The notes under the pieces are model-generated. The model made no database searches, was not told the origin of the DNA, and saw only the letters and a program-made list of their open reading frames with translations. A stretch of DNA of 21,434 bases. Source: Gammaproteobacteria bacterium (GTDB lineage: Bacteria; Pseudomonadota; Gammaproteobacteria; GRL18). A program made the position numbers and the translations under genes. Within the stretch, counting starts at the first letter, position 1. Each line of letters begins with the position of its first letter. Location: contig DAOVUK010000007.1 of the NCBI GenBank assembly GCA_030632625.1, positions 1-21,434 of the forward strand, read 5' to 3'. Shown piece by piece: positions 6,192 to 19,874 of this stretch.

Positions 6192-6869
6192 TCAAAAGTC
6201 ATACTTATAGCCCACGCCATAGAGAGAATGAATCATCTCTTCCGCACAGCCAGCCTGATGCAGCTTCTTTCTAAGATTCTTAATATGACTGTCAATGGTG
6301 CGATCGGTTACGATACGGTGATCAGTATATAAAGCATTCATCAACTGCTCACGGGAAAAAACTTTTCCCGGCATATTTTTCAAAACAGACAAGAGTCGAA
6401 ATTCAACCGGAGTCAAATCCAGATTAGTCTGATTAAAACGAGCGAGGTACTTTTCTTCATCAAGCAGCAGCCCTGAAGAGTGTTCCGGCAACTGGCTGGC
6501 TGATACGTCCAGGCGGCGAAATATTGCTTTTGCGCGTGCCACCACTTCACGTGGACTAAAGGGTTTACAAATATAATCATCCGCACCAATTTCCAGACCC
6601 AGAATGCGATCGATTTCCTCCACCCTGGCAGTGATCATAATAATAGGTACATTGGAAAACTGGCGAATTTCCCGACAAACATCCAGACCATCTTTACCCG
6701 GCAGCATTAAATCCAGCAAAATTAAAGCAGGTTCATGTTCTCTGACCCACTCAGCGACCTGAGTACCTTCATAGAGTGCTGATGTTGCAAATTGACTGGC
6801 ATGAAAATAATCTTCCAGTAAGCGGACAATTTTTATTTCATCTTCAACAATCAAAATATGTTTTGTCAT
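6192..6869 (-). CDS. baeR: Response regulator BaeR (OmpR/PhoB family)
   Basis: This 225-residue regulator has a receiver domain (about 1-120) followed by a winged-helix DNA-binding domain (about 128-225). The phosphoacceptor is D53 in LILLDLMLPG, acidic residues D10 and E11 lie in the pocket, and the conserved lysine is K102 in YICKPFSPREVV. The stretches CREIRQFSNVPIIM, EEIDRILGLEIGADDYICKP and VTDRTIDSHIKNLRKKL match E. coli BaeR closely. PhoB is a poorer fit. The start is the ATG at 6869, giving the classical MTKHILIVEDE opening. An in-frame ATG at 6890 lies inside the end of baeS and would add seven unlikely residues. The gene begins 4 bp after the baeS stop, so the two are coupled. It should control the divergent Spy-like gene. 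Confidence 0.88.
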   Translation of the reverse strand: MTKHILIVEDEIKIVRLLEDYFHASQFATSALYEGTQVAEWVREHEPALILLDLMLPGKDGLDVCREIRQFSNVPIIMITARVEEIDRILGLEIGADDYICKPFSPREVVARAKAIFRRLDVSASQLPEHSSGLLLDEEKYLARFNQTNLDLTPVEFRLLSVLKNMPGKVFSREQLMNALYTDHRIVTDRTIDSHIKNLRKKLHQAGCAEEMIHSLYGVGYKYDF

Positions 6870-6873
6870 AATT

Positions 6874-8325
6874 TTACTTTGGCAATACACATTTAATTAT
6901 GATCCCACCTCGTTCAGATGACTGAGCAGAGATATCACCATGATGTGCGATTACAATTTGTCTGGCAATCGCCAAACCCAGACCAGCACCACCATTGTCA
7001 CGAGAGCGTGAATTTTCCAGGCGAAACAGTCGCTCAAATATATGCGGCAGTTTATCTGGTGCAATTCCCGGAGCTGAATCCTCAATTGATATGATGACCT
7101 GTCTGTCATTCTCCTGACAATGAATCACAACCGCACCGCCAGTATCGGTATAACGTAATGAATTTTCTAATAAATTACTCAACAACTGATAGAGACGCTG
7201 TTTATCACCATTAAATAAAAACTGCTGAGAAATACTATTCTCAAGTTGCAATATTAAATTTTGTTTTTCAAAGCGATTTGCAAAGCTGTCTATTATTTCT
7301 GCAATCAGGTCATTAAAAATAAATTTCTGTTTTACATATTTTAAAGCGCCCATATCAGAGATGGACAGCTGATAAAGATCGTCAATCAATTTATTCAAAC
7401 GGTCACTTTCCTGCATCAGTGACATAAGGGCCGTTTTATCCAAAGGACGAATATCATCATCGAGTGCTTCCAGTTCACCTTTTAAAATAGCAACAGGTGT
7501 ACGCAGTTCATGGGAAATATCGGCAATCCATTGTCTTTGTGACTGTTGATTCTTTTCTAAGGTTCTGGCCAGAGTATTAAAGTCCTCCCCCAGCTGTCCC
7601 AGTTCATCTTTATGTTTTATGATAACCCGCTGCTGGTATTGTCCGGAAGTCAATTGCTGAGCAATCTGTGTCAGGGCATTAATGCGCCTGCGAAAATAAA
7701 CCGATACCAGCAAAGCAACTAATACTGACAGAATTAATGACAGCAGTGTATTGATAAAAAAAGCCCGGCTTTGCTGAGCTGCAAACATTTTATCTAAGCG
7801 GTCAGTGACTCCGGTAAATTTCTTACTTTGAATATACGCAATAATTTGTCCCTGACTTTTGATGGGGTAATATTGCATATCAGTCTCATTGGATAGTCTG
7901 CCGACTATCAATTTTTTCTGAGCATCCAGCAAACTTCGTTTCGGGGATCTTTTCTTATAAGCAGACTTACGACGGGTGGATGATTGCAAAAAGTCTTTTT
8001 TTCGCTCCTCATAATCCGCTGAAGAAAAGGTTTGTGAACGTTCTCTTTTGGATTTTTCACTGGCATTAAAGGATTCATGTCTGGCGCGCAAATAAAAAAA
8101 CCATAAACGATTATTGTCTCGAATAAATTCCCAATCACCATTTTCTTCATAAGCTATCAGCAGATTATTGCCCAGATTTTCCAGACGACGCTGCTGCTGC
8201 TGGTATAAATAATTGGCAAAGCCATTTTTAAAACTGCGTTGCGACAAACCAATACTCATCACAACAGTTAAGGTTGTAATGGCGATTAATATTAATGCCA
8301 GTTTATGCCAAATTTTAAGATTCAT
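6874..8325 (-). CDS. baeS: Envelope-stress sensor histidine kinase BaeS
   Basis: This 483-residue inner-membrane sensor kinase has TM1 at about 9-27, a periplasmic sensor region, TM2 at about 188-210, HAMP at 211-263, and HisKA with H272 in DISHELRTPVAILKGELEAL. The HATPase_c domain has the N box ENSLRYTDTGG, G1 DSAPGIA and G2 GAGLGLAIARQIV. The wording around QQRRLENLGNNL, GDWEFIRDNNRLW and DDLYQLSISDMGALKY matches E. coli BaeS, which responds to envelope stress, indole, flavonoids and metals. The periplasmic loop carries a Lys/Arg/Ser-rich insert (about 90-135) that I do not recall from E. coli BaeS and that may alter signal recognition. It is the first gene of a baeS-baeR operon and is divergent from its likely target at 8505. 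Confidence 0.88.
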   Translation of the reverse strand: MNLKIWHKLALILIAITTLTVVMSIGLSQRSFKNGFANYLYQQQQRRLENLGNNLLIAYEENGDWEFIRDNNRLWFFYLRARHESFNASEKSKRERSQTFSSADYEERKKDFLQSSTRRKSAYKKRSPKRSLLDAQKKLIVGRLSNETDMQYYPIKSQGQIIAYIQSKKFTGVTDRLDKMFAAQQSRAFFINTLLSLILSVLVALLVSVYFRRRINALTQIAQQLTSGQYQQRVIIKHKDELGQLGEDFNTLARTLEKNQQSQRQWIADISHELRTPVAILKGELEALDDDIRPLDKTALMSLMQESDRLNKLIDDLYQLSISDMGALKYVKQKFIFNDLIAEIIDSFANRFEKQNLILQLENSISQQFLFNGDKQRLYQLLSNLLENSLRYTDTGGAVVIHCQENDRQVIISIEDSAPGIAPDKLPHIFERLFRLENSRSRDNGGAGLGLAIARQIVIAHHGDISAQSSERGGIIIKCVLPK

Positions 8326-8504: not shown

Positions 8505-8864
8505 ATGCCCACTAAATTAAACAAACTGTTAATTGGTATTGCAGTCATTTCATTAACATCTGCTCCTCTGGCCTTCGCACAGGCATTCAATGGCAAGGGA
8601 CCCGACCAGAATCAGGCAGTAAAATCCAATTCTATCGGCTACGGCCTGACGAAAAAACTTAATCTGGATAAACAGCAAGAGAAACAGGTGCAGATTATTA
8701 TGAAACAACAACGAAAAGAATCCCGGACATGGAGGAAGCAGCACAGGCAAGAAACTGAAGCTAAATTAAGCACGGTGCTCAACACCGAGCAAATGGAAAA
8801 ATTTAAGGCTTTAAAACAACAGCGTCGCAATTTAAGAGCCAGGAAATATAAGCAGTCTTTGTAG
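8505..8864 (+). CDS. Spy/CpxP-like periplasmic protein (LTxxQ family)
   Basis: This is a 119-residue exported protein. A signal peptide (about 1-26, ending LAFAQA) precedes a charged helical region. It has two degenerate LTxxQ-type motifs, LNLDKQQEKQ (about 52-61) and LNTEQMEKF, with basic helix between them (MKQQRKESRTWRKQHRQ). That arrangement is typical of Spy and CpxP, which are periplasmic chaperones or stress adaptors. It is shorter than E. coli Spy (161 residues), and the LTxxQ threonines are replaced by Asn. The ATG at 8505 has a good ribosome binding site (AAGGAAAGGAAAG, purine-rich). Placement divergent from baeSR supports a BaeR-dependent stress target, as spy is in E. coli. Family assignment rests on motif and context, since this family diverges fast. 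Confidence 0.7.
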   Translation: MPTKLNKLLIGIAVISLTSAPLAFAQAFNGKGPDQNQAVKSNSIGYGLTKKLNLDKQQEKQVQIIMKQQRKESRTWRKQHRQETEAKLSTVLNTEQMEKFKALKQQRRNLRARKYKQSL

Positions 8865-8997: not shown

Positions 8998-9528
8998 ATG
9001 ACTATTTTATTAAAGCGGTTGACCATATTTTCTACTTCAATCTTTATGCTGGGTGCAATGTTCGCAATGAGCGATCAGGCTTATGCTGAGCAGAGACAGG
9101 GGCATTATAAACAGGAACAGAGCCATTTTAAAAACAAGCAGGCGAATTTTAAGCAGGAACAGAATCGCTATAAACACAAACAGACGCATTATAAGCAGGA
9201 ACACAATCGTTATAAAAACAAACAGACGCATTATAAGCAGGAACACAATCGCTATAAAAACAAACAGGCGCATTATAAACAGGAACACAATCGCTATAAA
9301 AACAAACAGGCGCATTATAAACAGGAACACAATCGCTATAAAAACAAACAGGCGCATTATAAGCAGGAACACAATCGCTATAAAAACAAACAGGCGCATT
9401 ATAAGCAGAAAAATCACAGACCTGCTCACGCCAGTAAACGTTATGCAAAAAACAGATACTCTGATTCATACGGCATAAATAATAGGCGCTATAATTCTGC
9501 CTCTTCATATCGCAGGTATCGCTATTAA
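8998..9528 (+). CDS. Exported Lys/Gln/His/Tyr-rich protein with seven 14-residue tandem repeats
   Basis: This is a 176-residue protein with a signal peptide (about 1-30, ending DQAYA). Seven units of consensus HYKQEHNRYKNKQA follow (about 36-133), then a partial eighth and a Tyr/Arg/Ser-rich tail ending SSYRRYRY. I do not recognise the family. Units 1 and 2 are degenerate (for example NFKQEQNRYKHKQT) and units 3-7 nearly identical. The mature protein is strongly basic, lacks cysteine, and has one or two His and two Tyr per unit at fixed spacing. The ATG has GAGGAAA about 7 nt upstream. It lies 133 bp after the Spy-like gene on the same strand, so it may belong to the same envelope-stress unit. 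Metal binding through His, or binding to anionic envelope polymers through Lys/Arg, is possible but unsupported beyond composition. Confidence 0.8.
   Translation: MTILLKRLTIFSTSIFMLGAMFAMSDQAYAEQRQGHYKQEQSHFKNKQANFKQEQNRYKHKQTHYKQEHNRYKNKQTHYKQEHNRYKNKQAHYKQEHNRYKNKQAHYKQEHNRYKNKQAHYKQEHNRYKNKQAHYKQKNHRPAHASKRYAKNRYSDSYGINNRRYNSASSYRRYRY
9103..9408 (+). repeat. 42-bp tandem repeat array, 7 units plus a 12-bp partial
   Basis: Units begin at 9103, 9145, 9187, 9229, 9271, 9313 and 9355, with a partial unit from 9397. Units 5 and 6 are identical to each other, as are 4 and 7, and the two pairs differ by one base (AAA versus AAG, both Lys). Units 1-3 are more diverged. The unit is 14 codons, so copy number can change without a frameshift. 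Its stop-free reading in other frames produces spurious overlapping ORFs on both strands. Confidence 0.97.
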
Positions 9529-11555: not shown

Positions 11556-12359
11556 TTAACCATATCTTCCTTCAATATAATCAGCAGTTTCTTTACACTT
11601 TGGTACGACAAACAGATCATCTGTTTTCTGATGTTCTACGACCTTACCCATGAGCATAAAAATACATTCATCACTGGCTCGTCTGGCCTGAGCCATATTG
11701 TGAGTCACCATTAAAATGGAATATTCTCCGCGTAACTCCCAAATCAACTCTTCTACTGCTGCTGTACCTTTGGGATCAAGCGCTGAACAGGGTTCATCCA
11801 TTAATAAAACATTGGGCTTTACCGGTAATAATCGAGCAATACAGAGTTTTTGCTGTTCTTCCAGCGATAAACTAATGGCTTTATGATTTAGCTTGTCTTT
11901 GACCTTATCCCATAACAAGACCTGGCGCAGTGAACTTTCAACAATATCATCATAATCTGCCGATGAATAGGATTTATCTTTCATATGCAGTTTATGACCA
12001 AATAAGATATTTTCTTTTATGGTGGCGGGTAATGGATTGGGTCGTTGAAAAACCATGCCGATTTGTTTTCGAACTTGTATCAGCTCCACATCATCTGCAT
12101 AGATATTTTGCTTATGAACATGAATACCACCTTCAATTCGGACATATCCCAGACGTTCGTTAATCCGATTAATGCTGCGTAGAAAAGTAGATTTTCCACA
12201 GCCTGAGGGACCAATTAATGACGTTATTATGCCGCTTTTAATATCCAGATCGATATCAAAAAGTGCCTGAAATGCTCCATACCAGAGATTCAGCTTTTTC
12301 GATTGAATGGCATAATGATTTGCGTTTTCGTTTGTTTGTTCAGCAGTTGCTGTATTCAT
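11556..12359 (-). CDS. pstB: Phosphate ABC transporter ATPase PstB, signature-degenerate paralogue
   Basis: This 267-residue ATPase would power phosphate import through PstC/PstA at the inner membrane. Walker A is GPSGCGKS (50-57), the Q-loop is Q105 in VFQRPNPLP, Walker B is VLLMDEPCSALDP (184-196) and the H-loop is H220 in VTHNMAQARRA. The ABC signature is altered: LSGGQ is replaced by LSLEE (164-168) within LSLEEQQKLCIAR. The codons read cleanly, so I see no sign of a sequencing error. The upstream paralogue keeps the signature but has lost Q- and H-loop residues, which suggests an obligate heterodimer. It is last in the operon, 72 bp after the first pstB; its ribosome binding site is weak (AAGG, 3-nt spacing). 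The C-terminus YIEGRYG is typical PstB. Confidence 0.9.
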   Translation of the reverse strand: MNTATAEQTNENANHYAIQSKKLNLWYGAFQALFDIDLDIKSGIITSLIGPSGCGKSTFLRSINRINERLGYVRIEGGIHVHKQNIYADDVELIQVRKQIGMVFQRPNPLPATIKENILFGHKLHMKDKSYSSADYDDIVESSLRQVLLWDKVKDKLNHKAISLSLEEQQKLCIARLLPVKPNVLLMDEPCSALDPKGTAAVEELIWELRGEYSILMVTHNMAQARRASDECIFMLMGKVVEHQKTDDLFVVPKCKETADYIEGRYG

Positions 12360-12431
12360 TGACCTTGGCCTATAAAAAACAATGTTATAAATGAGTTATG
12401 AATGAATTAAGTTTTAGTCAGAGATAAAACT

Positions 12432-13253
12432 CTAGCCAAAGCGACCTTCAATATAGTCTGTGGTTTTACTATTCTCTACCTGACCATTAAACAGTGCTTC
12501 TGTATCACCTGTTTCTATGCACTCTCCTTCCAGGAAAAATGCTGTTCGATCAGCCAGTCGACGAGCCTGCTGAACTAAATTGGTGACCAGAATAATAGTC
12601 ATTTCATTTTTTAACTCTTTCAGGACTTCTTCAATTCGCATCGTTGTCACTGGATCAACCGCAATAGAAAATTCATCTAAAATCAGCAGTTCCGGCTCCT
12701 GAGACAATGCTCTGGCAATGGTCAGACGCTGCTGCTGTCCGCCTGAAAGCAGGCTGCCCAAAGAATCCAGCCGGTCTTTTACTTCATCCCATAGCGCAGA
12801 ACGCTGCAAGCATCTTTGTACTATTTCATCCAGTGACGCTTTATCCTTAATTCCTCTGAGTCGAGGCGACAGGGCAACATTTTCATAAACCGTCATGGGC
12901 AGACCCACGGGCAGAGGAAATACCACACCGATACGACTGCGCAATGCATAGACATTTTTTAATTGATGAATATCTCTGCCATTAAACAGGATCTTACCTT
13001 CCACCTTCATATTTGCATCAAAGGTGTTCATCAGATTAAGTGCTTTTAAAAAACTGGTTTTACCCGCATTAGCAGGGCCAATAATACCGAAAATTTCGTT
13101 TTCATAAATTTTAAAATTAACATCACTGATGGCTGCTTCTTTGCCATAAGAAACAGTCAGATCACTGATATCAAGCTTTATTTTTTTTTGCTCTGCAGTC
13201 GACTCTGTTTCTGATTTTCTTTGTACCATTGCTTCTAACATTGTGTCTACCAT
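12432..13253 (-). CDS. pstB: Phosphate ABC transporter ATPase PstB, paralogue with degenerate Q- and H-loops
   Basis: This is a 273-residue ATPase of the PstB family. Walker A GPANAGKT (59-66), signature LSGGQQQRLTIAR (169-181) and Walker B LLILDE (189-194) are present. The Q-loop Gln is Pro113 (VFPLPVGLP where E. coli has VFQKPTPFP), the DEPCSALDP block reads DEFSIAVDP, and the switch His is Asn225 (VTNLVQQARR). A site built from these Walker motifs should hydrolyse ATP poorly, but its intact signature can complete the site of the partner PstB. The start overlaps the pstA stop by 7 bp, indicating translational coupling; a second in-frame ATG 12 nt downstream is possible. The N-terminal 25 residues are a polar extension. 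The C-terminus YIEGRFG is typical. Confidence 0.9.
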   Translation of the reverse strand: MVDTMLEAMVQRKSETESTAEQKKIKLDISDLTVSYGKEAAISDVNFKIYENEIFGIIGPANAGKTSFLKALNLMNTFDANMKVEGKILFNGRDIHQLKNVYALRSRIGVVFPLPVGLPMTVYENVALSPRLRGIKDKASLDEIVQRCLQRSALWDEVKDRLDSLGSLLSGGQQQRLTIARALSQEPELLILDEFSIAVDPVTTMRIEEVLKELKNEMTIILVTNLVQQARRLADRTAFFLEGECIETGDTEALFNGQVENSKTTDYIEGRFG

Positions 13254-14176
13254 TTTTTCTTACCCCGTAAATACATTCTAAAAGCAATCGAAACACTATT
13301 CATTAATAAAACCATACCAATCAAAACAAGCGCGACTGCATAAGGTAATGACTCAGGGACATTCGGAACCTGTGTTGAGACAACAAACAGATGCAGGGAC
13401 AATGCCATCGTTTGATCAAAAACACTCTGTGGTAAGAAAGGCAGAAAGAATGCGGCACCGGTGAACATAATAGGGGCGGTTTCACCCGTGGTTCTGGAAA
13501 CTTCCAGAATAACACCGGTTAAAATACCACTCACGGCATTAGGCAAAACGACCCGCCTGATAGTTTGCCAGCGAGTCGCCCCCATATTCCAGCAGGCTTC
13601 ACGAAAGGCATGAGGAACCGCCTGTAATGCTTCCCGGGTGGAGACAATAACCACCGGTAAAGTCATAATAGCGAGCGTTAAACTGGCCGCCATAATACTG
13701 GTTCCAAAGCCGAAAAACATCACAAAAGCACCGACACCAAAGAGTGCATGAACAATAGAAGGTACTCCGGCAAGATTAATAATCGCCAGATTGATAGCAC
13801 GGGTAAACCAGTTCTCTGAGGCATATTCACTTAAATAAATGGCAGCGGCTATTCCCAGCGGTACAGAAATAAGTAACGCCAGACTCACTAGCCATACAGT
13901 ACCCAGTAAAGCAGGAAAAATACCACCCTCAGTCATACCATTGATCGGATCAGTAAAAAGAAAGTCAATGGAGATCATTGAACCGCCTTTAACAATCAGC
14001 GTACCTAAAATGATTAATACCGGAAGGATTAATAATAAAGTCATCATTAAAAAAAGAACACGATAAAGACTTTGTATTTTTTTATTTTTTACATTAAGTT
14101 GAGATTCTGCAAACAGGCTTTCTGTTAACTTGTTTTCAACGGGCATTGCTTCTACAGACATCGATTCTACAGACAT
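13247..14176 (-). CDS. pstA: Phosphate ABC transporter permease PstA
   Basis: This is an inner-membrane permease of 309 residues with about six hydrophobic helices, the first at about 39-62. It forms the phosphate channel with PstC. The cytoplasmic EAA loop that docks PstB reads FREACWNMGATRWQTIRRVV (about 191-210), with LPNA following. TTGETAPIMFTGAAF near the C-terminus is a PstA hallmark and separates it from PstC. The first 15 residues (MSVESMSVEAMPVEN) come from a 15-bp tandem triplication that supplies three in-frame ATGs. The first, at 14176, has AGGA about 6 nt upstream and is chosen. It lies 46 bp after pstC and overlaps the following pstB by 7 bp. Confidence 0.93.
   Translation of the reverse strand: MSVESMSVEAMPVENKLTESLFAESQLNVKNKKIQSLYRVLFLMMTLLLILPVLIILGTLIVKGGSMISIDFLFTDPINGMTEGGIFPALLGTVWLVSLALLISVPLGIAAAIYLSEYASENWFTRAINLAIINLAGVPSIVHALFGVGAFVMFFGFGTSIMAASLTLAIMTLPVVIVSTREALQAVPHAFREACWNMGATRWQTIRRVVLPNAVSGILTGVILEVSRTTGETAPIMFTGAAFFLPFLPQSVFDQTMALSLHLFVVSTQVPNVPESLPYAVALVLIGMVLLMNSVSIAFRMYLRGKKKW
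14132..14176 (-). repeat. 15-bp tandem repeat at the pstA start (3 units)
   Basis: Three successive 15-nt units on the minus strand each begin ATG and encode MSVES, MSVEA and MPVEN. The first two differ at two bases and the third is more diverged. The result is three in-frame start codons 15 nt apart. Confidence 0.85.
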
Positions 14177-14222: not shown

Positions 14223-15152
14223 TTATTGATTTTTTATACCACGAACAATTAAATCAGCCGTGAGATTAATAACAAAGGTGATCAGGAACAAGAAAATTCC
14301 AATGGTGAACAACACCTGATAGTGTTCTGAACCCACTGCCGTTTCACCCAGTTCAGCCGCGATAGTAGCGGTTAATGCTCTGACAGAATCAAACACACTG
14401 CCCGGTATATTAACCGCATGCCCCGTGGCCATCAAAACGGCCATGGTTTCACCAAAACCGCGACCGACACCCAGAAGTATTGCGCCTAACAAGCCATTTT
14501 TTGCAGCCGGTAAGACTGTTTTATAAATGACCTGCCAGCGTGTAGCACCTAATGCTTCTGCTGCTTCGCGATATCGGTCAGGTACTGCTTTAAGTGCATC
14601 TTCCGCAATAGAAGTCATAATCGGTGCAGCCATCAAACCCAGAATAATACCGGCATTGAGTACGGTGAGTCCCACCGGTACATCAAAAATCTCAATAATG
14701 AGCGGATTCATAATGGTCAGGCCGATAAAGCCCCACACAACTGAAGGTATAGCCGCCAGAAGCTCGACCAGAACTTTTAAATATTCTCTGGTTTTTCCGG
14801 TTGAAAATTCAGCAATATAGATTGCCGTACCTAAAGAAAATGGAATAGCGATTAACATAGCCAGTCCGGTGACACTGGCAGTACCGGCTATCAGGGCTAA
14901 AATACCATATTCCGGAGCATCTTCATCACTGGGTTCCCAATATTCTGAGCCAAAAAACTCACTGAAACTAAAGCTGTCGAATAAAAACCCCATACCTTCC
15001 ATGGTCACAAAAACAAAAATACCTACAACAAAAATAATTGCTGAGATACCACTGATAAAGACAATTATTTCAACAAGCTTATCGATATACCAGTCTAAAG
15101 TTCGCCGGTCAAACTGTTCATTCATTGCTTCTCTGGTTTGTGTTGTTGTCAT
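14223..15152 (-). CDS. pstC: Phosphate ABC transporter permease PstC
   Basis: This 309-residue inner-membrane permease has a first helix at about 27-50, then an acidic periplasmic loop (EYWEPSDEDAPEYG), and further helices in the binding-protein-dependent permease fold. The EAA loop YREAAEALGATRWQVIYKTV (about 194-213) contacts PstB. GVGRGFGETMAVLMATGHA is the typical PstC motif containing the conserved Arg and Glu implicated in phosphate transport. The ATG at 15152 has GAGG about 8 nt upstream, overlapping the end of phoU; only 3 bp separate the phoU stop from this start, so the two are tightly coupled. Length is normal for the family. Confidence 0.93.
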   Translation of the reverse strand: MTTTQTREAMNEQFDRRTLDWYIDKLVEIIVFISGISAIIFVVGIFVFVTMEGMGFLFDSFSFSEFFGSEYWEPSDEDAPEYGILALIAGTASVTGLAMLIAIPFSLGTAIYIAEFSTGKTREYLKVLVELLAAIPSVVWGFIGLTIMNPLIIEIFDVPVGLTVLNAGIILGLMAAPIMTSIAEDALKAVPDRYREAAEALGATRWQVIYKTVLPAAKNGLLGAILLGVGRGFGETMAVLMATGHAVNIPGSVFDSVRALTATIAAELGETAVGSEHYQVLFTIGIFLFLITFVINLTADLIVRGIKNQ

Positions 15153-15155
15153 TTG

Positions 15156-16220
15156 TTACACCTCTTCACCCAGTAACAGCACCATTAAATCTTTAATGTG
15201 CAAAGCTAAAGTACGGTAGAGGACTTCCATATTGTGTTCATCTGACTCTGAGCTGATATCCCACTCTACAGCACTGGTATGAAAGGGAATTGAATCCAGA
15301 TAACTACTGACATCGCCCTGTAAACTGACAATAACGTGTTTTTCTGAAATTTCCTGATGACTTAACTGCTCCAGGCTGGTGATACTCAAATCAGTTATAT
15401 CAGATCCCCTTGAGTCGAGAAAATCGACCAATTTCGGGTTAATAGATGCGGCAGCCGTGCGTCCGGCACTATCAAAATCACAGATACCGGGATAATTTTT
15501 TCGGGCTATAGCCACTGCCAGTTGACTCAGATTACTATTATCTTCGTCAATAAATAATATTTTATAAACCTTGGGGGCCTTTTGCTCACCGGTTACCGCA
15601 AAAATAGTATCCTCACACAGATTTTTTGCCTGATCTGCCACACGCTTAAGCTGGGTAAAAACAACAAACAGCGCCAGCGTATCTTTAGCATTTTGTTTCT
15701 GGTTATTCTGACTGATTGCCTCATACACGACATCAAGGTTATATTCCATACTCCCGGCCATCACCATGGTGCTTCTTGCAAATTCGGCATTTAATTCTTC
15801 AAATGATTTAATTGACTGTTTTAACATCAGCAGGGATTCGGTGGCCAGACGTTCGATTTCTCTACCGATAAGCCCTTCTGGAGAAGCGCTTAATTGAATA
15901 GCTTCACGTGCTATAATAACGGCATAATCCCCCATGCGCTCCAGCTCAATGTTAATTCTTATAATTGAAGACAGTAAGCGTAAGTGTGATCCGCTGGGCA
16001 AATGTGTGGCAATAAATTTATGGCATAACCGATCGATCTCACGCATGGTCCGATTAATCGGATGGTCATTTAGAATCGTTGCATAAGCTAACTTATTATT
16101 GCCTGTCTGCAAAGCATGGACAGAATCATGAACGCCTGTTTGTACTTTCCGGGCTTGTTCTATAATGCGAGCACGTATATTTTGCAAATCATTTTCAAGA
16201 CGTTGTTCCAGGTGTGACAT
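15156..16220 (-). CDS. phoU: PhoU fused to an inactive LMW-phosphatase/ArsC-like domain
   Basis: PhoU represses phosphate signalling and restrains the Pst transporter. Residues 1-210 form the usual two three-helix PhoU repeats, with ELERMGDYA (about 92-100) and LKRVADQAKNLCEDTIF (191-207) carrying the metal-binding pattern. Standard PhoU (about 240 residues) ends here. This protein runs to 354, and about 219-350 reads as a low-molecular-weight phosphotyrosine phosphatase/arsenate reductase fold: KILFIDEDNSNLSQLA in place of the P-loop, then FDSAGRTAAASINPKLVDFL, HVIVSLQGD and AVEWDI. The catalytic Cys of CxxNxCRS is Asp225 and the Arg is Leu231, so it should not be a phosphatase. The start is the ATG at 16220 (MSHLEQRLENDLQ); an upstream in-frame ATG would read through the terminator hairpin after pstS. 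PhoU before pstC is an unusual order. Confidence 0.88.
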   Translation of the reverse strand: MSHLEQRLENDLQNIRARIIEQARKVQTGVHDSVHALQTGNNKLAYATILNDHPINRTMREIDRLCHKFIATHLPSGSHLRLLSSIIRINIELERMGDYAVIIAREAIQLSASPEGLIGREIERLATESLLMLKQSIKSFEELNAEFARSTMVMAGSMEYNLDVVYEAISQNNQKQNAKDTLALFVVFTQLKRVADQAKNLCEDTIFAVTGEQKAPKVYKILFIDEDNSNLSQLAVAIARKNYPGICDFDSAGRTAAASINPKLVDFLDSRGSDITDLSITSLEQLSHQEISEKHVIVSLQGDVSSYLDSIPFHTSAVEWDISSESDEHNMEVLYRTLALHIKDLMVLLLGEEV

Positions 16221-16298
16221 AAATAATTCCAGTGATAATTTAAAGCGATAATTTAAGGCTATAGTTATGGGTAATGGCCAGGTAAAAAGTCTAACCGC

Positions 16299-16330
16299 AA
16301 AAAGAGTACAGGCTAATTCGCCCTGCACTC
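16299..16330 (-). terminator. Intrinsic terminator between pstS and phoU
   Basis: On the minus strand GAGTGCAGG (16330-16322) pairs with CCTGTACTC (16312-16304) with one G-T wobble and a 9-nt loop, followed by a T5 run. It sits about 30 bp after the pstS stop, where partial termination would give more PstS than membrane components. Confidence 0.75.
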
Positions 16331-16360: not shown

Positions 16361-17239
16361 TTAGTCACATTTCACATCTTTTGCTGGCGCATAGCCTTTC
16401 TTAAGAAGTATGCATTGACCTTTATCACTGAGGATCCAGTCAAGGTATTTTTTGGTTTCACCGGCAGGTTCGCCATTGGTATACATAAAGAGTGGACGGG
16501 CAATAGGATAACTGCGGTCACTGGCAGTTGCTACACTGGGGTTAACACAGGTATCGCCCGTTTTTTTAGAGATACAGGCCATTTTTACATGCTTATTGGC
16601 ATAGGCTAAACCACTATAACCGATTGCACAGGGTGTATTTTCAACCAGATCCACCACGTCTTTTGAACCATGCATATCTAAAGTACCCTGACGAAATTTT
16701 CCTTTCTTGCCTAAGGCTGCTTTTTTGAAATAGGCATAAGTGCCTGAATTATTCTGACGACTGACGACAACAATCTTATCCTGCTTACAACCAGGAACAG
16801 TCACATCTAAATCAGACCATTTAGTTGCCTTACCGCCACGTCCAAAGATTTCTTTTAATTGTTCAAAAGACAGTGTATTGATAGGACTATTTTTATGTAA
16901 AAAAACAGCTAAAGCATCATAGCCTACAATATGTTGAATGGGGTTTTGACCTTTTTTCTTAGCTCGTTCAATTTCTTTTTTCTTCATTGCCCGACTGGCG
17001 TTAGCGATATCAACCGTACCATTAATCAACGCTGCAATTCCAGTGCCTGAACCTCCGCCTGAAACAGCAACGGCGACATTTTTATCAATATTTCGATACT
17101 CTTCTGCCCATGCCTGAGCAACATTGACCAGCGTGTCTGAACCTTTATTCTGTATCACAGTACGAGCGTATACATGAGCAGATATCATACCCATACTCAA
17201 AACCAACAGGCTGGAGATTGTTAATTGTTTTTTATTCAT
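16361..17239 (-). CDS. pstS: Phosphate-binding periplasmic protein PstS
   Basis: This 292-residue exported binding protein captures phosphate in the periplasm and delivers it to PstCA. The signal peptide covers about 1-25 (ending HVYA). Ligand-site motifs follow family order: KGSDTLV (about 32-38), VSGGGSGTGIAALINGTVDI, ANASRAM, and SRQNNSGTYAYF. The C-terminal half keeps AIGYSGLAYA, RPLFMYTNGEPAGE and YLDWILSDKGQ. Four cysteines (including PGCKQD, PCAIG and DTCVN) may form disulfides. The ATG at 17239 is preceded by AAGGAA about 6 nt away. It is the first gene after a PHO box, and a terminator after it probably makes it the most abundant product of the operon. Confidence 0.95.
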   Translation of the reverse strand: MNKKQLTISSLLVLSMGMISAHVYARTVIQNKGSDTLVNVAQAWAEEYRNIDKNVAVAVSGGGSGTGIAALINGTVDIANASRAMKKKEIERAKKKGQNPIQHIVGYDALAVFLHKNSPINTLSFEQLKEIFGRGGKATKWSDLDVTVPGCKQDKIVVVSRQNNSGTYAYFKKAALGKKGKFRQGTLDMHGSKDVVDLVENTPCAIGYSGLAYANKHVKMACISKKTGDTCVNPSVATASDRSYPIARPLFMYTNGEPAGETKKYLDWILSDKGQCILLKKGYAPAKDVKCD

Positions 17240-17279: not shown

Positions 17280-17313
17280 AGTATATGAAAGGAATATGAC
17301 AGTATTGTGACAG
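17280..17313 (-). promoter_or_regulatory. PHO box and -10 of the pst promoter
   Basis: On the minus strand CTGTCACAATACTGTCAT (17313-17296) gives two CTGTCA(C/T) heptamers with 4-bp spacing, an almost perfect PhoB site. TATACT (17285-17280) follows after 10 bp, the right position for a PhoB-activated promoter without a -35. It lies about 40 bp upstream of pstS. This predicts induction by phosphate starvation, although phoB and phoR are not in the window. Confidence 0.9.
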
Positions 17314-17344
17314 AATTAAAATGATTAGGCGTTTTTATGGCGCG

Positions 17345-17382
17345 TTGTGACACTAAGTTGTGACACTAAGTTGTGACACTAA
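17345..17382. repeat. 13-bp tandem repeat TTGTGACACTAAG (2.9 copies)
   Basis: Units lie at 17345-17357, 17358-17370 and 17371-17382 (last base missing and final bases diverging), filling the gap between the apgM stop and the pst promoter region. On the minus strand each unit contains GTGTCAC, one base from the PHO-box heptamer CTGTCAC. The 13-bp period differs from the canonical 11 bp. Confidence 0.9.
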
Positions 17383-18693
17383 TTAGTTTTTATGACACTC
17401 TGATGATATTTTTGACGACACATGAACCGGCTCAATATAGGGTGTATCTTCTTTTTTAAAATTATGAAGATAACCCATCTGATCTAACACTGATAATAAA
17501 AATGAGTTAGCAGAGAGTCGGCCCAGACCACCATATAAACATTCCTGTTCTGAGTAGGTCATGCTTTTATCATGGCGACCATAAGGAGAATAGAGGATAG
17601 AAGGTACTGGATCACCACAATGAAATCCCGTATTACTGTCAGTGGAGTGGTCACCTGTGACGGCAATAATGGTATTATTGATCTCAATGTCTGCCAGTGC
17701 GGCATCAATTTTTTCAATAAACTGACTTTTTAGTTTTGCCTGATGATCATGAGCACAGATATCAGTGCCCTTTATATGCAAATAAACCAAATCATGATGC
17801 TTCATTGCCTTCAGAGACGATTCAACTTTAGTTTTTAAGTCAGTATCAATCAGTGCCGTAAACTCGGGTCGTGTAACCGTAGTGAAACCAAATAGTTTGC
17901 TCAGGCCTTGAACTGTGGTCTCTCCGGAAATAACCGCCGTTTTTATTTTATAATAATTGAGTAAATTATTAATTGAATTTATTTGACCGGCACTACGGCA
18001 GATAATACCTGTGGCTGGTATTTTTCCCTGTTTTAAACGTTGTTTGTTTACTGGATGTGCAGTTAAAATCTGATGAGCCTGGCGGCTGAAGAGATTGACT
18101 GCTTCAGCTGTTTGTCTGGCTGCTTTTCCGCTGCTTAATGGCTGGCATTGCTGAACATTGGCAGGCACACTTTGACTACAATCTGTATCACTTATCTTTG
18201 CTGATAAATTTTTCCCTTGTAGATGCAGTACGGCTCTATGCTGGGTGGCAGGATGTAAACTGGCTTTGATTCCATACGGTAGTTCAATATCATTTAAAGC
18301 CTGTGCCAGAGCCTCAGTCTGATGATTTACTCTGCCTGCTCTTCTATCGAGAACGTTTAAATGCCCCTCCTGTGCTGCTTCAATATGAGCAAAATTACAG
18401 CGTAATAAAACATCACCTTCCCGGGCTGATAAATTGATTCCTGCTGCTTCTACCGGCCCCCGTGAAAGACAGGCAGTATCTTTAGGCGTCAGCCCCATCA
18501 ATAAAGCCATTCCCGTATGCGTACTAACAGGCATGCCGGGTGTTAGCGGATCGACCATTGCACCCATACCTTTACTGACCAGTTTGTCAAAAAAAGGCGT
18601 TTGAGCATTTTCTAATGGCGTCAGTCCGTTTAATTCTGCTACCGGACGATCGCCAAGACCATCCATAATAATGATTAAAGCTTTATGTTTCAT
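17383..18693 (-). CDS. apgM: Archaeal-type (ApgM family) phosphoglycerate mutase
   Basis: This 436-residue member of the alkaline phosphatase superfamily should interconvert 3- and 2-phosphoglycerate without a 2,3-BPG cofactor, in the cytosol. Metal-site residues are visible: D11 in IIIMDGLGDRP, D311 and H315 in HIKGTDICAHD, D348-H349 in VTGDHST, and H358 in HCGDPVP. SRGPVEAAGI, GDVLLRCNFA, LDRRAGRV and KISDTDC follow ApgM order. The nucleophile region reads PVSTHTGMALLMGLTP, where archaeal enzymes, as I recall, have PGSDTAHLALLGYDP. Ser57 is kept but neighbouring residues differ, so this is a divergent subfamily. The ATG overlaps the stop of the 2-phosphoglycerate kinase gene (ATGA), indicating coupled translation. 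No PHO box is visible upstream of the pair. Confidence 0.87.
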   Translation of the reverse strand: MKHKALIIIMDGLGDRPVAELNGLTPLENAQTPFFDKLVSKGMGAMVDPLTPGMPVSTHTGMALLMGLTPKDTACLSRGPVEAAGINLSAREGDVLLRCNFAHIEAAQEGHLNVLDRRAGRVNHQTEALAQALNDIELPYGIKASLHPATQHRAVLHLQGKNLSAKISDTDCSQSVPANVQQCQPLSSGKAARQTAEAVNLFSRQAHQILTAHPVNKQRLKQGKIPATGIICRSAGQINSINNLLNYYKIKTAVISGETTVQGLSKLFGFTTVTRPEFTALIDTDLKTKVESSLKAMKHHDLVYLHIKGTDICAHDHQAKLKSQFIEKIDAALADIEINNTIIAVTGDHSTDSNTGFHCGDPVPSILYSPYGRHDKSMTYSEQECLYGGLGRLSANSFLLSVLDQMGYLHNFKKEDTPYIEPVHVSSKISSECHKN

Positions 18694-19874
18694 ACAGGAA
18701 AAACTTCATCTATATCAAAAGAAAAATACGGGAACAGGATATCATTGATGTTTTTCATCACATCCTGAATAGCTCTTTCTTTGTTAATATTGGATACGAT
18801 AGGGACATTATAGCGATCAGCTTCTGCCATAAGAAATGATTGTAATTCCCAGATTTCAGAAAAATGTTCCAGATAGCGTTTTGCTCGTCGCTCCTGCACT
18901 TCCTGACCACGCCCTTTAAGGCGCTCTTTTAACTTTCCAGCTTTTAACACCGATAACATCACAGGTGCAATAATAGCGGTATTAATATTGGGTAAAATTT
19001 CCAGCAAACCAGGATGAAAATGTACACCTTCTAAAATTAACGAAACTTGTTCCTTTATAGCCCGGTTGAGTATTGCTTCACAAGCAACAGATATTAATTC
19101 AGCCTGACGAAGATAACCACCCACCACCAATTGTTCAGTCATTGGCTCATCTATTTCAATACCCGGCTGAACTTTCCATGCGTTATATGATGAGGTATGC
19201 AACACTGGAGACAAGCGTTGCGGAGTCATTATTCGCATCACTTCACGCAGCATATCAGTAGACTGAGTGCGTACAATACCAAAACGGTGTCCTACTTCTG
19301 TGGCAATGGTACTTTTACCTACTCCTGCAGTACCGCCAATCAGGATAATAAGCGGCCGCCCGCTATGCAAAAAATCTGACCAGATCAAATAACGTTTTGC
19401 GACATTTTCATCCAGTTCGGATAATAATAGTTGATAGGTCATACGCCCTAACTCATTAGAGGAAATTTCGGAGGAACCCCGAACTAATAAATTATTATAA
19501 ATCGTCAGGGTAATCGAATTGGACTCTTCACTGGAAAGACCACAAGATTCCATACACAATCGATGCTGAGCCCGAGAAAAGGGCAGCGGATCTTTTCCAG
19601 CATTGATAACCATAATAGTGGACGTACTAGATGCAGCAGAGGTAAAGCTTTCAATAATATCCTGTGCAACCTCACCTTTTAGTTTAGAAGTGACAATATC
19701 ACGTAATTCTGATGTAGTGATCTGCTGCTTATCATTAATCTGCTGTCTTATTTCACTGGCCAGGTAATAAGCAAGATCAAATTCGACACCAGCATCCATC
19801 AATGAACTGGTCAGAATTCCTCTCAGGAAAGGTGTTTGCATCCCTTCTGAATTTTTTACAATGGTTTTGGACAT
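18690..19874 (-). CDS. 2-phosphoglycerate kinase with two ATP-cone-like modules
   Basis: This 394-residue cytosolic enzyme should phosphorylate 2-phosphoglycerate to 2,3-bisphosphoglycerate with ATP; in methanogens this leads to cyclic 2,3-diphosphoglycerate. The P-loop kinase domain (about 173-385) has IILIGGTAGVGKST (176-189), STDMLREVMR (205-214), LILEGVHFHPG, and a basic LKERLKGRGQEVQERRAKRY segment. Two modules precede it: about 13-75 (TPFLRGILTSSLMDAGVEFD) and about 96-166 (LPFSRAQHRLCMESCGLSSE). Both read like the ATP-cone nucleotide-sensing fold; archaeal enzymes, as I recall, have one. The start is the ATG at 19874 with AAGG about 8 nt upstream. It is coupled to apgM by a 4-bp overlap. 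Whether the in vivo substrate is 2-phosphoglycerate cannot be proven from sequence. Confidence 0.85.
   Translation of the reverse strand: MSKTIVKNSEGMQTPFLRGILTSSLMDAGVEFDLAYYLASEIRQQINDKQQITTSELRDIVTSKLKGEVAQDIIESFTSAASSTSTIMVINAGKDPLPFSRAQHRLCMESCGLSSEESNSITLTIYNNLLVRGSSEISSNELGRMTYQLLLSELDENVAKRYLIWSDFLHSGRPLIILIGGTAGVGKSTIATEVGHRFGIVRTQSTDMLREVMRIMTPQRLSPVLHTSSYNAWKVQPGIEIDEPMTEQLVVGGYLRQAELISVACEAILNRAIKEQVSLILEGVHFHPGLLEILPNINTAIIAPVMLSVLKAGKLKERLKGRGQEVQERRAKRYLEHFSEIWELQSFLMAEADRYNVPIVSNINKERAIQDVMKNINDILFPYFSFDIDEVFPV

What the first reader, a model, noticed from the sequence alone, without database searches (positions are those of the whole stretch)
11556..13253. Two PstB paralogues with complementary motif losses: a predicted asymmetric phosphate importer
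The first PstB keeps Walker A, Walker B and an intact LSGGQ signature but has Pro for the Q-loop Gln (P113) and Asn for the switch His (N225). The second PstB keeps Walker A, Q105, Walker B and H220 but has LSLEE in place of LSGGQ. ABC sites form between the Walker motifs of one subunit and the signature of the other. A heterodimer would therefore have one fully canonical site (second PstB Walker/Q/H plus first PstB signature) and one site with all the lesions. This is the logic of asymmetric exporters such as TAP or TM287/288; the PstB I know from E. coli is a homodimer. Either homodimer should be impaired, so the two genes would be mutually dependent.
Basis: partly seen in the sequence, partly recalled or inferred. 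Interest (0 to 1): 0.78.

Follow-up and report, generated by a model that had tools for sequence, protein, structure and literature searches.

The report
Asymmetric two-ATPase phosphate importer
Bacteria known mostly from environmental DNA carry a phosphate importer whose two motor proteins are each altered in a different, complementary way, so that together they should form one working and one silent engine; the variant looks old and conserved, and I found no description of it in the papers searched.

Summary
It is not a local oddity. In 82 distinct PstB-a proteins Pro, Asn and LSGGQ are invariant; in 77 distinct PstB-b proteins Gln is invariant, His kept in 76, LSGGQ in 0. Each type stays one group when motif columns are removed. 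79 of 82 PstB-a genes have PstB-b directly downstream; 3 lie at a sequence end. In 369 genomes of the window's class the same 8 carry both. The pair occurs under nine phylum labels. In 12 of 28 genomes it is the only PstB match at E 1e-30. The operon is a pst operon, usually with a PhoU fused to an ArsC-like domain lacking its catalytic Cys (26 of 27). Best reading: an obligate PstB heterodimer with one consensus and one degenerate ATP site, working like TAP or Pdr5 but in an importer. Unlike Pdr5, PstB-a keeps the Walker Lys and catalytic Glu. Heterodimer assembly and ATP stoichiometry are untested.

The parts
12432..13253 (-). pstB-a (first PstB): Q-loop Gln->Pro113, switch His->Asn225, LSGGQ kept, Walker Lys and catalytic Glu kept
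   Evidence: TIGR00972 290.9 bits, below its 343.2 cut-off; model pLDDT 85.0, first PDB match E. coli PstB 9k3x
12915..12917 (-). codon of Pro113 (Q-loop position) in pstB-a
12579..12581 (-). codon of Asn225 (switch-His position) in pstB-a
12735..12749 (-). intact signature LSGGQ (169-173) of pstB-a
11556..12359 (-). pstB-b (second PstB): Walker A, Gln105, Walker B and His220 canonical; signature LSLEE
   Evidence: TIGR00972 320.6 bits, below its 343.2 cut-off
11856..11870 (-). replaced signature LSLEE (164-168) of pstB-b
13247..14176 (-). pstA permease; Trp196 in the EAA coupling loop is specific to the asymmetric systems compared
   Evidence: TIGR00974 266 bits over cut-off 193.45; Trp in 35 of 35 asymmetric PstA
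14223..15152 (-). pstC permease; Glu199 at the equivalent coupling-loop position
   Evidence: TIGR02138 276.8 bits over cut-off 196.45; Glu in 28 of 35 asymmetric PstC
15156..16328 (-). phoU fused to a C-terminal ArsC/LMW-phosphatase-like domain (residues ~253-390) without the catalytic Cys; the conserved start is probably Met37 (codon 16218-16220)
   Evidence: AlphaFold2 model pLDDT 86.9 matching PhoU 4q25 and ArsC 1lk0
16361..17239 (-). pstS phosphate-binding protein
   Evidence: TIGR02136 243.1 bits over cut-off 206.6
17286..17313 (-). two overlapping Pho-box-like sites (repeats 11 bases apart), 1 mismatch each to a recalled consensus
   Evidence: sites with 2 mismatches near the pstS start in 3 of 7 relatives tested

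Best explanation
The operon encodes a high-affinity phosphate ABC importer (PstS, PstC, PstA) powered by an obligate PstB-a/PstB-b heterodimer. ABC ATP sites are built from the Walker motifs, Q-loop and switch of one subunit and the signature of the other. One site (PstB-b Walker/Q105/H220 with PstB-a LSGGQ) is therefore fully consensus and hydrolyses ATP. The other (PstB-a Walker with Pro113/Asn225 and PstB-b LSLEE) can probably still bind Mg-ATP through its intact P-loop and Asp-Glu, but should be slow or silent in hydrolysis, acting as a structural, regulatory or 'glue' site. Shown here: motif states, strict pairing, deep conservation, operon context, purifying selection. Inferred: heterodimer assembly, one dominant hydrolysis per transport cycle, loss of function of each homodimer. 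Each of the two types looks like a single lineage; whether they are sisters is not resolved. The pair usually goes with a PhoU carrying a largely dead ArsC-like domain, so the asymmetry may also serve Pho signalling.
For: Exact complementary lesions, invariant across 82 and nearly so across 77 distinct proteins. Each type is one group with 49 motif columns dropped and in an IQ-TREE run. Adjacent in 79/82, the other 3 at sequence ends; the same 8 of 369 class genomes have both. PstB-a and PstB-b distance matrices of 77 pairs correlate (r 0.905, 0 of 1000 permutations as high). dN/dS 0.03-0.20 for six operon genes against two relatives. In 12 of 28 genomes no other PstB match at E 1e-30. PstA, PstC and PstS score over curated phosphate cut-offs. 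Pho-box-like sites before pstS. E. coli PstB signature mutant Q160K is transport-dead (PMC5775613, passages). The yeast Pdr5 degenerate site uses signature LNVEQ with an H-loop change (PMC7756269, passages), close to LSLEQ/LQLEQ here.
Against: The catalytic Glu and Walker Lys persist in PstB-a in 82/82, so hydrolysis at the second site is possible. The 27 named records with the pair or its first gene (L039-L064, L066) are all labelled MAG. The PstA and PstC coupling regions as a whole are not unusually diverged, so a rewired coupling interface rests on single positions. The link between the PstB-a P-loop residue and the PstB-b signature residue is not independent of ancestry. No Pho-box-like site with up to 3 mismatches was found at the pstS start in 4 of 7 relatives. 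Correlated distance matrices follow from shared descent and do not prove contact.
Confidence: 0.8

Rival explanations
1. The complex is mainly a phosphate sensor (transceptor): the signature-defective half keeps the transporter in a signalling state read by the fused PhoU, and transport is secondary or absent.
For: E. coli PstB Q160K (signature) does not transport but signals phosphate sufficiency (PMC5775613, passages). The PhoU fusion is in the same 8 of 369 class genomes as the pair and in 40 of 45 planctomycete-class genomes with PstB-a, the other 5 lying at contig ends.
Against: 12 of 28 genomes have no other PstB match; one complete consensus ATP site is preserved; genomes of L051-L054, L056 and L064 show only plain PhoU and that of L055 none at E 1e-5.
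Confidence: 0.12
2. The heterodimer exists but both ATP sites hydrolyse in turn, the second slowly, so that the asymmetry changes kinetics or order but not the two-ATP stoichiometry (overlaps with the best explanation).
For: Walker Lys and Walker B Glu are kept in 82 of 82 PstB-a, unlike the degenerate site of Pdr5, which lost both (PMC7756269, passages).
Against: Q-loop, switch His and the opposing signature are all replaced in the same composite site.
Confidence: 0.25
3. The two PstB proteins form separate homodimers that swap on the same PstCA, as alternative motors for different conditions.
For: Enterococcus faecalis tandem pstB1/pstB2 have non-overlapping functions (PMC12096839, abstract and passages).
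Against: Those two proteins keep the four motifs examined there, as do two adjacent (L095, L098) and two nearby (L092, L118) pairs of Bacillota seen here. In this system each homodimer would have two damaged sites, and the lesions are complementary in the 77 full pairs compared.
Confidence: 0.05
4. The substrate is not ordinary phosphate (for example another oxyanion), the ArsC-like domain pointing to arsenate.
For: ArsC/LMW-phosphatase-like domain on PhoU.
Against: PstS, PstC and PstA pass curated phosphate cut-offs; Pho-box-like sites precede pstS; the catalytic Cys is replaced in 26 of 27 fusion proteins aligned.
Confidence: 0.04
5. Decay or sequencing artefact.
For: None beyond the lesions themselves.
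Against: Invariance under nine phylum labels and dN/dS 0.03-0.20.
Confidence: 0.01

Closest known systems
E. coli PstSCAB (two copies of one PstB; PDB 9k3x, 9k3s)
   Same: Same gene set, fold and operon logic; the PstB-a model aligns to 9k3x_C over 245 columns with 1.6 A rmsd.
   Different: E. coli uses two copies of one canonical PstB (4 chains in 2 entries); here two paired, differently lesioned PstB.
Tandem pstB of Bacillota (E. faecalis pstB1/pstB2, B. subtilis PstBA/PstBB)
   Same: Two adjacent pstB genes; PstBA and PstBB were modelled together for B. subtilis (PMC11466899, passages).
   Different: Both copies keep canonical motifs (PMC12096839, passages; own loci L095, L098, and the nearby copies in L092, L118); these four loci fall with ordinary PstB in the tree.
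Asymmetric exporters: TAP (ABCB2/B3), TM287/288, Pdr5
   Same: One consensus and one degenerate composite ATP site with lesions split over both NBDs; the Pdr5 signature LNVEQ resembles LSLEQ/LQLEQ (PMC7756269, passages).
   Different: Those are exporters, and their degenerate sites commonly lose the Walker B Glu (Pdr5 also the Walker Lys); PstB-a keeps both. No common descent of the asymmetry is implied.
RbsA and NupO type fused importer NBDs
   Same: Importers with one degenerate ATP site (PMC11466899, passages).
   Different: Fused NBDs, type II importers, Walker A Lys lost in the second domain; here separate subunits of a Pst importer.

Membership tests
PstB equivalog (TIGR00972) | whole-protein score over curated cut-off 343.2 bits | tested here: not met
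   PstB-a 290.9, PstB-b 320.6; the genome's other PstB on contig C140 scores 401.9
PstB equivalog (TIGR00972) | canonical Walker A, Q-loop Gln, LSGGQ, Walker B and switch His in one subunit | tested here: not met
   each subunit lacks a different part
Pst phosphate importer (as a complex) | PstA, PstC and PstS over curated cut-offs, in one operon with PstB-like ATPases | tested here: met
   same order in relatives
Pst phosphate importer (as a complex) | phosphate uptake | not testable with these tools
   no assay
ABC transporter with one degenerate site | lesions split so that one composite site is consensus and the other degenerate | tested here: met
   motif logic in 77 full pairs
ABC transporter with one degenerate site | loss of the catalytic Walker B Glu in the degenerate site (common, not universal) | tested here: not met
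   Asp-Glu kept in 82 of 82 PstB-a
ABC transporter with one degenerate site | physical NBD heterodimer | not testable with these tools
   single-chain prediction only
PhoU | two PhoU domains, PhoU fold | tested here: met
   PF01895, two stretches; 4q25_A TM 0.94 by target length
LMW phosphatase / ArsC (PF01451) | catalytic CX5R loop | tested here: not met
   window reads IDEDNSNLSQ at the loop; of 27 fusion proteins aligned only L059 has the Cys and CX5R; the fold matches ArsC

The most novel reading that the evidence does not exclude
A conserved class of phosphate importer runs on a single catalytic ATP site (about one ATP per phosphate) while its ATP-holding degenerate site, read by a PhoU with a dead phosphatase-like domain, works as the cell's phosphate sensor: transport and sensing are divided between the two halves of one ATPase dimer.
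Probability: 0.25. Interest if true: 0.87.

Novelty: new variant of a known kind. Interest (0 to 1): 0.73.

Why it matters
Pst is the textbook high-affinity phosphate importer and is treated as powered by two copies of one PstB. Here a version in which the two ATP sites were made unequal has been kept under nine phylum labels, including Accumulibacter (L040-L042), a key genus in biological phosphorus removal (PMC11131965, abstract start in a search listing). It offers a natural test of two open questions: how many ATP a binding-protein-dependent importer needs per substrate, and how the Pst complex reports phosphate status to PhoU. Both can be tested in a laboratory E. coli pst-null strain. 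It also means that genomes whose only PstB-like genes are this pair may be mis-scored by annotation, since both subunits in the window fall below the curated PstB cut-off.

Tried and rejected
Decay or artefact: rejected by invariance and dN/dS. Ordinary tandem pstB copies: rejected, because adjacent pairs of Bacillota (L095, L098) and nearby ones (L092, L118) keep all motifs. Circular classification (the profiles contain the motifs): answered by a tree with 49 motif columns removed, in which each type stays one group. Coupling-helix rewiring as a region-wide signal: not supported; 127 of 259 sliding windows in PstA and 225 of 271 in PstC diverge more than the coupling window, although PstA Trp196 and PstC Glu199 stand out. 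Coevolution of the PstB-a P-loop residue with the PstB-b signature residue: visible in counts, but 1 of 5 independent pairs informative. The Pho-box pattern with up to 3 mismatches gives 10 matches in the window against 5.59 expected, reached by 4 of 100 shuffles; only the 1-mismatch sites count for me. Plasmid search: the 5000 best records, where the cap stopped it, all match under 60% identity; not followed. The control genomes gave no readable loci, so cyanobacterial tandem pstB could not be checked. A heterodimer model was not possible with the single-chain predictor.

Discordant cases: L066/G414 has a truncated PstB-a and no PstB-b match at E 1e-30 (the contig ends inside PstB-a). L041/G415 and L047/G396 show PstB-b only in pieces at contig ends. 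One PstB-b (L234) has Tyr for the switch His. In the planctomycete class 5 genomes have PstB-a but no PhoU-fusion match and 3 the reverse; contig lengths show that in all 8 the contig ends before, or within about 60 bases of, the place where the partner is expected from the spacing in L043. Of the 45 planctomycete-class PstB-a places only 30 were fetched and looked at for PstB-b; of the 23 acidobacterial ones all 23. Genomes without a match are so only at the thresholds used (E 1e-74 to 1e-84, and only the best first-look candidates were scored), so more diverged members may be missed.

No description in print was found in ten searches of an open-licence library; subscription papers are mostly not covered.

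Full report
Observation. The two ORFs and all named residues are exactly as stated: PstB-a 12432-13253 (Pro113, Asn225, LSGGQ 169-173) and PstB-b 11556-12359 (Gln105, His220, LSLEE 164-168), both minus strand. Alignment to E. coli PstB in the PDB places the changes on the Q-loop Gln, the switch His and the signature. Both proteins score below the curated PstB cut-off of NCBIfam TIGR00972 (290.9 and 320.6 against 343.2), while a third PstB-like gene elsewhere in the same genome scores 401.9.

Surroundings. On the minus strand the order is 2-phosphoglycerate kinase-like (18690-19874), apgM-type phosphoglycerate mutase (17383-18693), then pstS, phoU fusion, pstC, pstA, pstB-a, pstB-b. PstS, PstC and PstA pass their curated cut-offs. 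Two overlapping Pho-box-like sites with one mismatch each precede pstS at 17286-17313; only one other site that good exists in the window, both strands. The consensus is recalled, not from a call. In seven relatives tested with the same pattern, 5 of all 7 sites with at most 2 mismatches among 230,932 positions lie in the 370-base stretch around the start of the pstS frame, in 3 of the 7 loci (L170, L169, L165; L170 is a near relative of the window); the other 4 have none there even with 3 mismatches.

Conservation of the lesions. The 120 listed nearest homologues of each protein keep its lesion pattern without exception (these are the top 120 of 7998 and 8000 scored, so close relatives). For deeper sampling I pooled loci from the GTDB contig scan and whole-genome searches. 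Among distinct proteins longer than 225 residues, PstB-a has Pro 82/82, Asn 82/82, LSGGQ 82/82, Asp-Glu 82/82 and Phe after Glu 82/82. PstB-b has Gln 77/77, His 76/77, Asp-Glu 77/77 and LSGGQ 0/77 (LSLEE 47, LSLEQ 13, LQLEQ 10, seven others once each). Ninety-five other PstB-like proteins keep Gln in 91, His in 92 and [LMI]SGGQ in 89. The seven of the 95 with any departure are third PstB-like copies beside the pair (L054; L056 and L233, one gene seen twice), an Anaerolineae PstB (L113), two further PstB-like proteins (L156, L158) and a distant ABC protein (L004).

Pairing. By distinct protein, 79 of 82 PstB-a have PstB-b directly downstream and 3 are at the end of the held sequence; 76 of 77 PstB-b have PstB-a upstream and 1 is at an end. 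In one genome (G407) the two lie at the ends of two contigs, as expected of a broken assembly. In 369 genomes sampled from the window's class, the same 8 carry PstB-a and PstB-b at the thresholds used. PstB-a frequencies elsewhere: 4 of 24 in the family, 45 of 154 in the class of planctomycete genome G392 (30 of the 45 places fetched and examined for PstB-b), 23 of 199 in the phylum of acidobacterial genome G412 (23 of 23 examined).

History. In a 116-row IQ-TREE quick tree (some rows are one place seen through two searches) PstB-a and PstB-b are each one side of a branch with 100% SH-aLRT. In a FastTree tree of 254 distinct proteins with 49 motif columns removed both remain single groups at 99%. 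PstB-b sits among ordinary PstB; the place of PstB-a, on a long branch, is not resolved, so the two are not shown to be sisters. Labels place the pair in Pseudomonadota, Planctomycetota, Acidobacteriota, Verrucomicrobiota, Nitrospirota, Myxococcota, Bdellovibrionota, Rhodothermota and Poribacteria; the 27 named records are all labelled MAG. The two distance matrices over 77 pairs correlate at 0.905, as expected of joint inheritance. dN/dS against G012 and G007 is 0.03-0.20 for six operon genes.

Function. In 12 of 28 genomes searched (G392, G393, G394, G397, G398, G400, G401, G402, G404, G406, G408, G410) the pair gives the only matches to PstB-b at E 1e-30. There it is the only candidate Pst motor unless the assembly lacks another. 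Because each ATP site is shared between subunits, the arrangement predicts one consensus and one degenerate site. E. coli PstB Q160K, a signature change, abolishes transport and signals phosphate sufficiency, and E179Q also abolishes transport (PMC5775613, passages read), so a PstB-b homodimer is expected to fail. The degenerate site keeps its P-loop Lys and its Asp-Glu, so nucleotide binding is likely and slow hydrolysis is not excluded. A predicted PstB-a model (pLDDT 85.0; apart from the N-terminus weakest around the Q-loop, block 111-120 mean 65) matches E. coli PstB first.

Permeases. Against PstA and PstC of ordinary systems (42 and 38 loci), the asymmetric ones (34 loci plus the window) differ at the same coupling-loop position in different ways: PstA Trp196 in 35/35 against mostly Leu/Tyr, and PstC Glu199 in 28/35 against mostly Leu/Tyr. 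The coupling windows as a whole are not exceptional. Which permease holds which PstB is open.

The PhoU partner. PhoU in this operon carries a C-terminal domain that Pfam calls LMWPc above its cut-off in 5 of 7 relatives tested (below cut-off in L164, unmatched in L170 and, in the window, where NCBIfam finds a weak ArsC match). The predicted structure matches ArsC (TM 0.86 by target length) beside PhoU (0.94). Of 36 asymmetric loci examined (window, L039-L064, L066, L164-L171), 27 have the fusion. For L166 and L058 it lies on another contig of the genome. The genomes of L051-L054, L056 and L064 show only plain PhoU, that of L055 none at E 1e-5. None of the 59 other PhoU rows in the alignment has the domain, and of the 27 that do 24 have Asp, 2 Gly and 1 (L059, with CX5R) Cys at the catalytic position. 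In the class sample the same 8 of 369 genomes hold the fusion, PstB-a and PstB-b. In the planctomycete class 40 genomes hold both fusion and PstB-a, 5 only PstB-a, 3 only the fusion, 106 neither; the 8 discordant ones are at contig ends.

What is known. Tandem pstB genes are described for Bacillota, with both copies canonical and non-equivalent in E. faecalis (PMC12096839, abstract and passages). B. subtilis PstBA/PstBB were modelled together, and degenerate sites are noted for the fused NBDs RbsA and NupO (PMC11466899, passages). Degenerate sites in exporters are reviewed in PMC7756269 (passages), where Pdr5 has the signature LNVEQ and ATP in the degenerate site is suggested to act as glue. 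Ten searches found no account of complementary lesions in PstB or of this PhoU fusion. The library lacks most subscription papers.

Verdict. It is a new variant of a known kind: a Pst importer with a heteromeric, asymmetric ATPase. What remains is the bench: assembly, stoichiometry and signalling.

Noticed in passing
15156-16328 (residues ~253-390): PhoU fused to an ArsC/LMW-phosphatase-like domain that lost its catalytic Cys; closely tied to the asymmetric PstB pair in two genome samples, and one relative (L059) still has the CX5R loop.
   Followed up: yes
17383-19874: 2-phosphoglycerate kinase-like and apgM phosphoglycerate mutase genes directly upstream of pstS; also beside the pst operon in L170 and L167 (both genes), L048 (2PGK), L045 and L066 (apgM). 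A possible link to 2,3-bisphosphoglycerate as a phosphate store.
   Followed up: partly
L054:12495-13292 and L056:7612-8496: A third, differently degenerate PstB (Asn at the switch, Arg or Thr at the Q position, LSIGQ or LTTSM) lies downstream of the pair in a Poribacteria and an Acidobacteria contig; in L054 with a PstA-like frame between.
   Followed up: partly
L113:4569-5339: A PstB in an Anaerolineae contig with Ala at the Q-loop Gln but His and LSGGQ kept; no second PstB was found in that locus.
   Followed up: no
17344-17382: Three tandem copies of a 13-base unit (TTAGTGTCACAAC on the minus strand) between apgM and the Pho-box-like sites.
   Followed up: no
8998-9528: ORF made of repeated HYKQEHNRYKNKQA-like units, next to a BaeS/BaeR-like pair (6192-8325) and a small ORF with a signal-peptide-like start (8505-8864).
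   Followed up: no
G000:C140:3529-4287: The same genome carries a canonical PstB elsewhere, so here the asymmetric system is a second one.
   Followed up: partly
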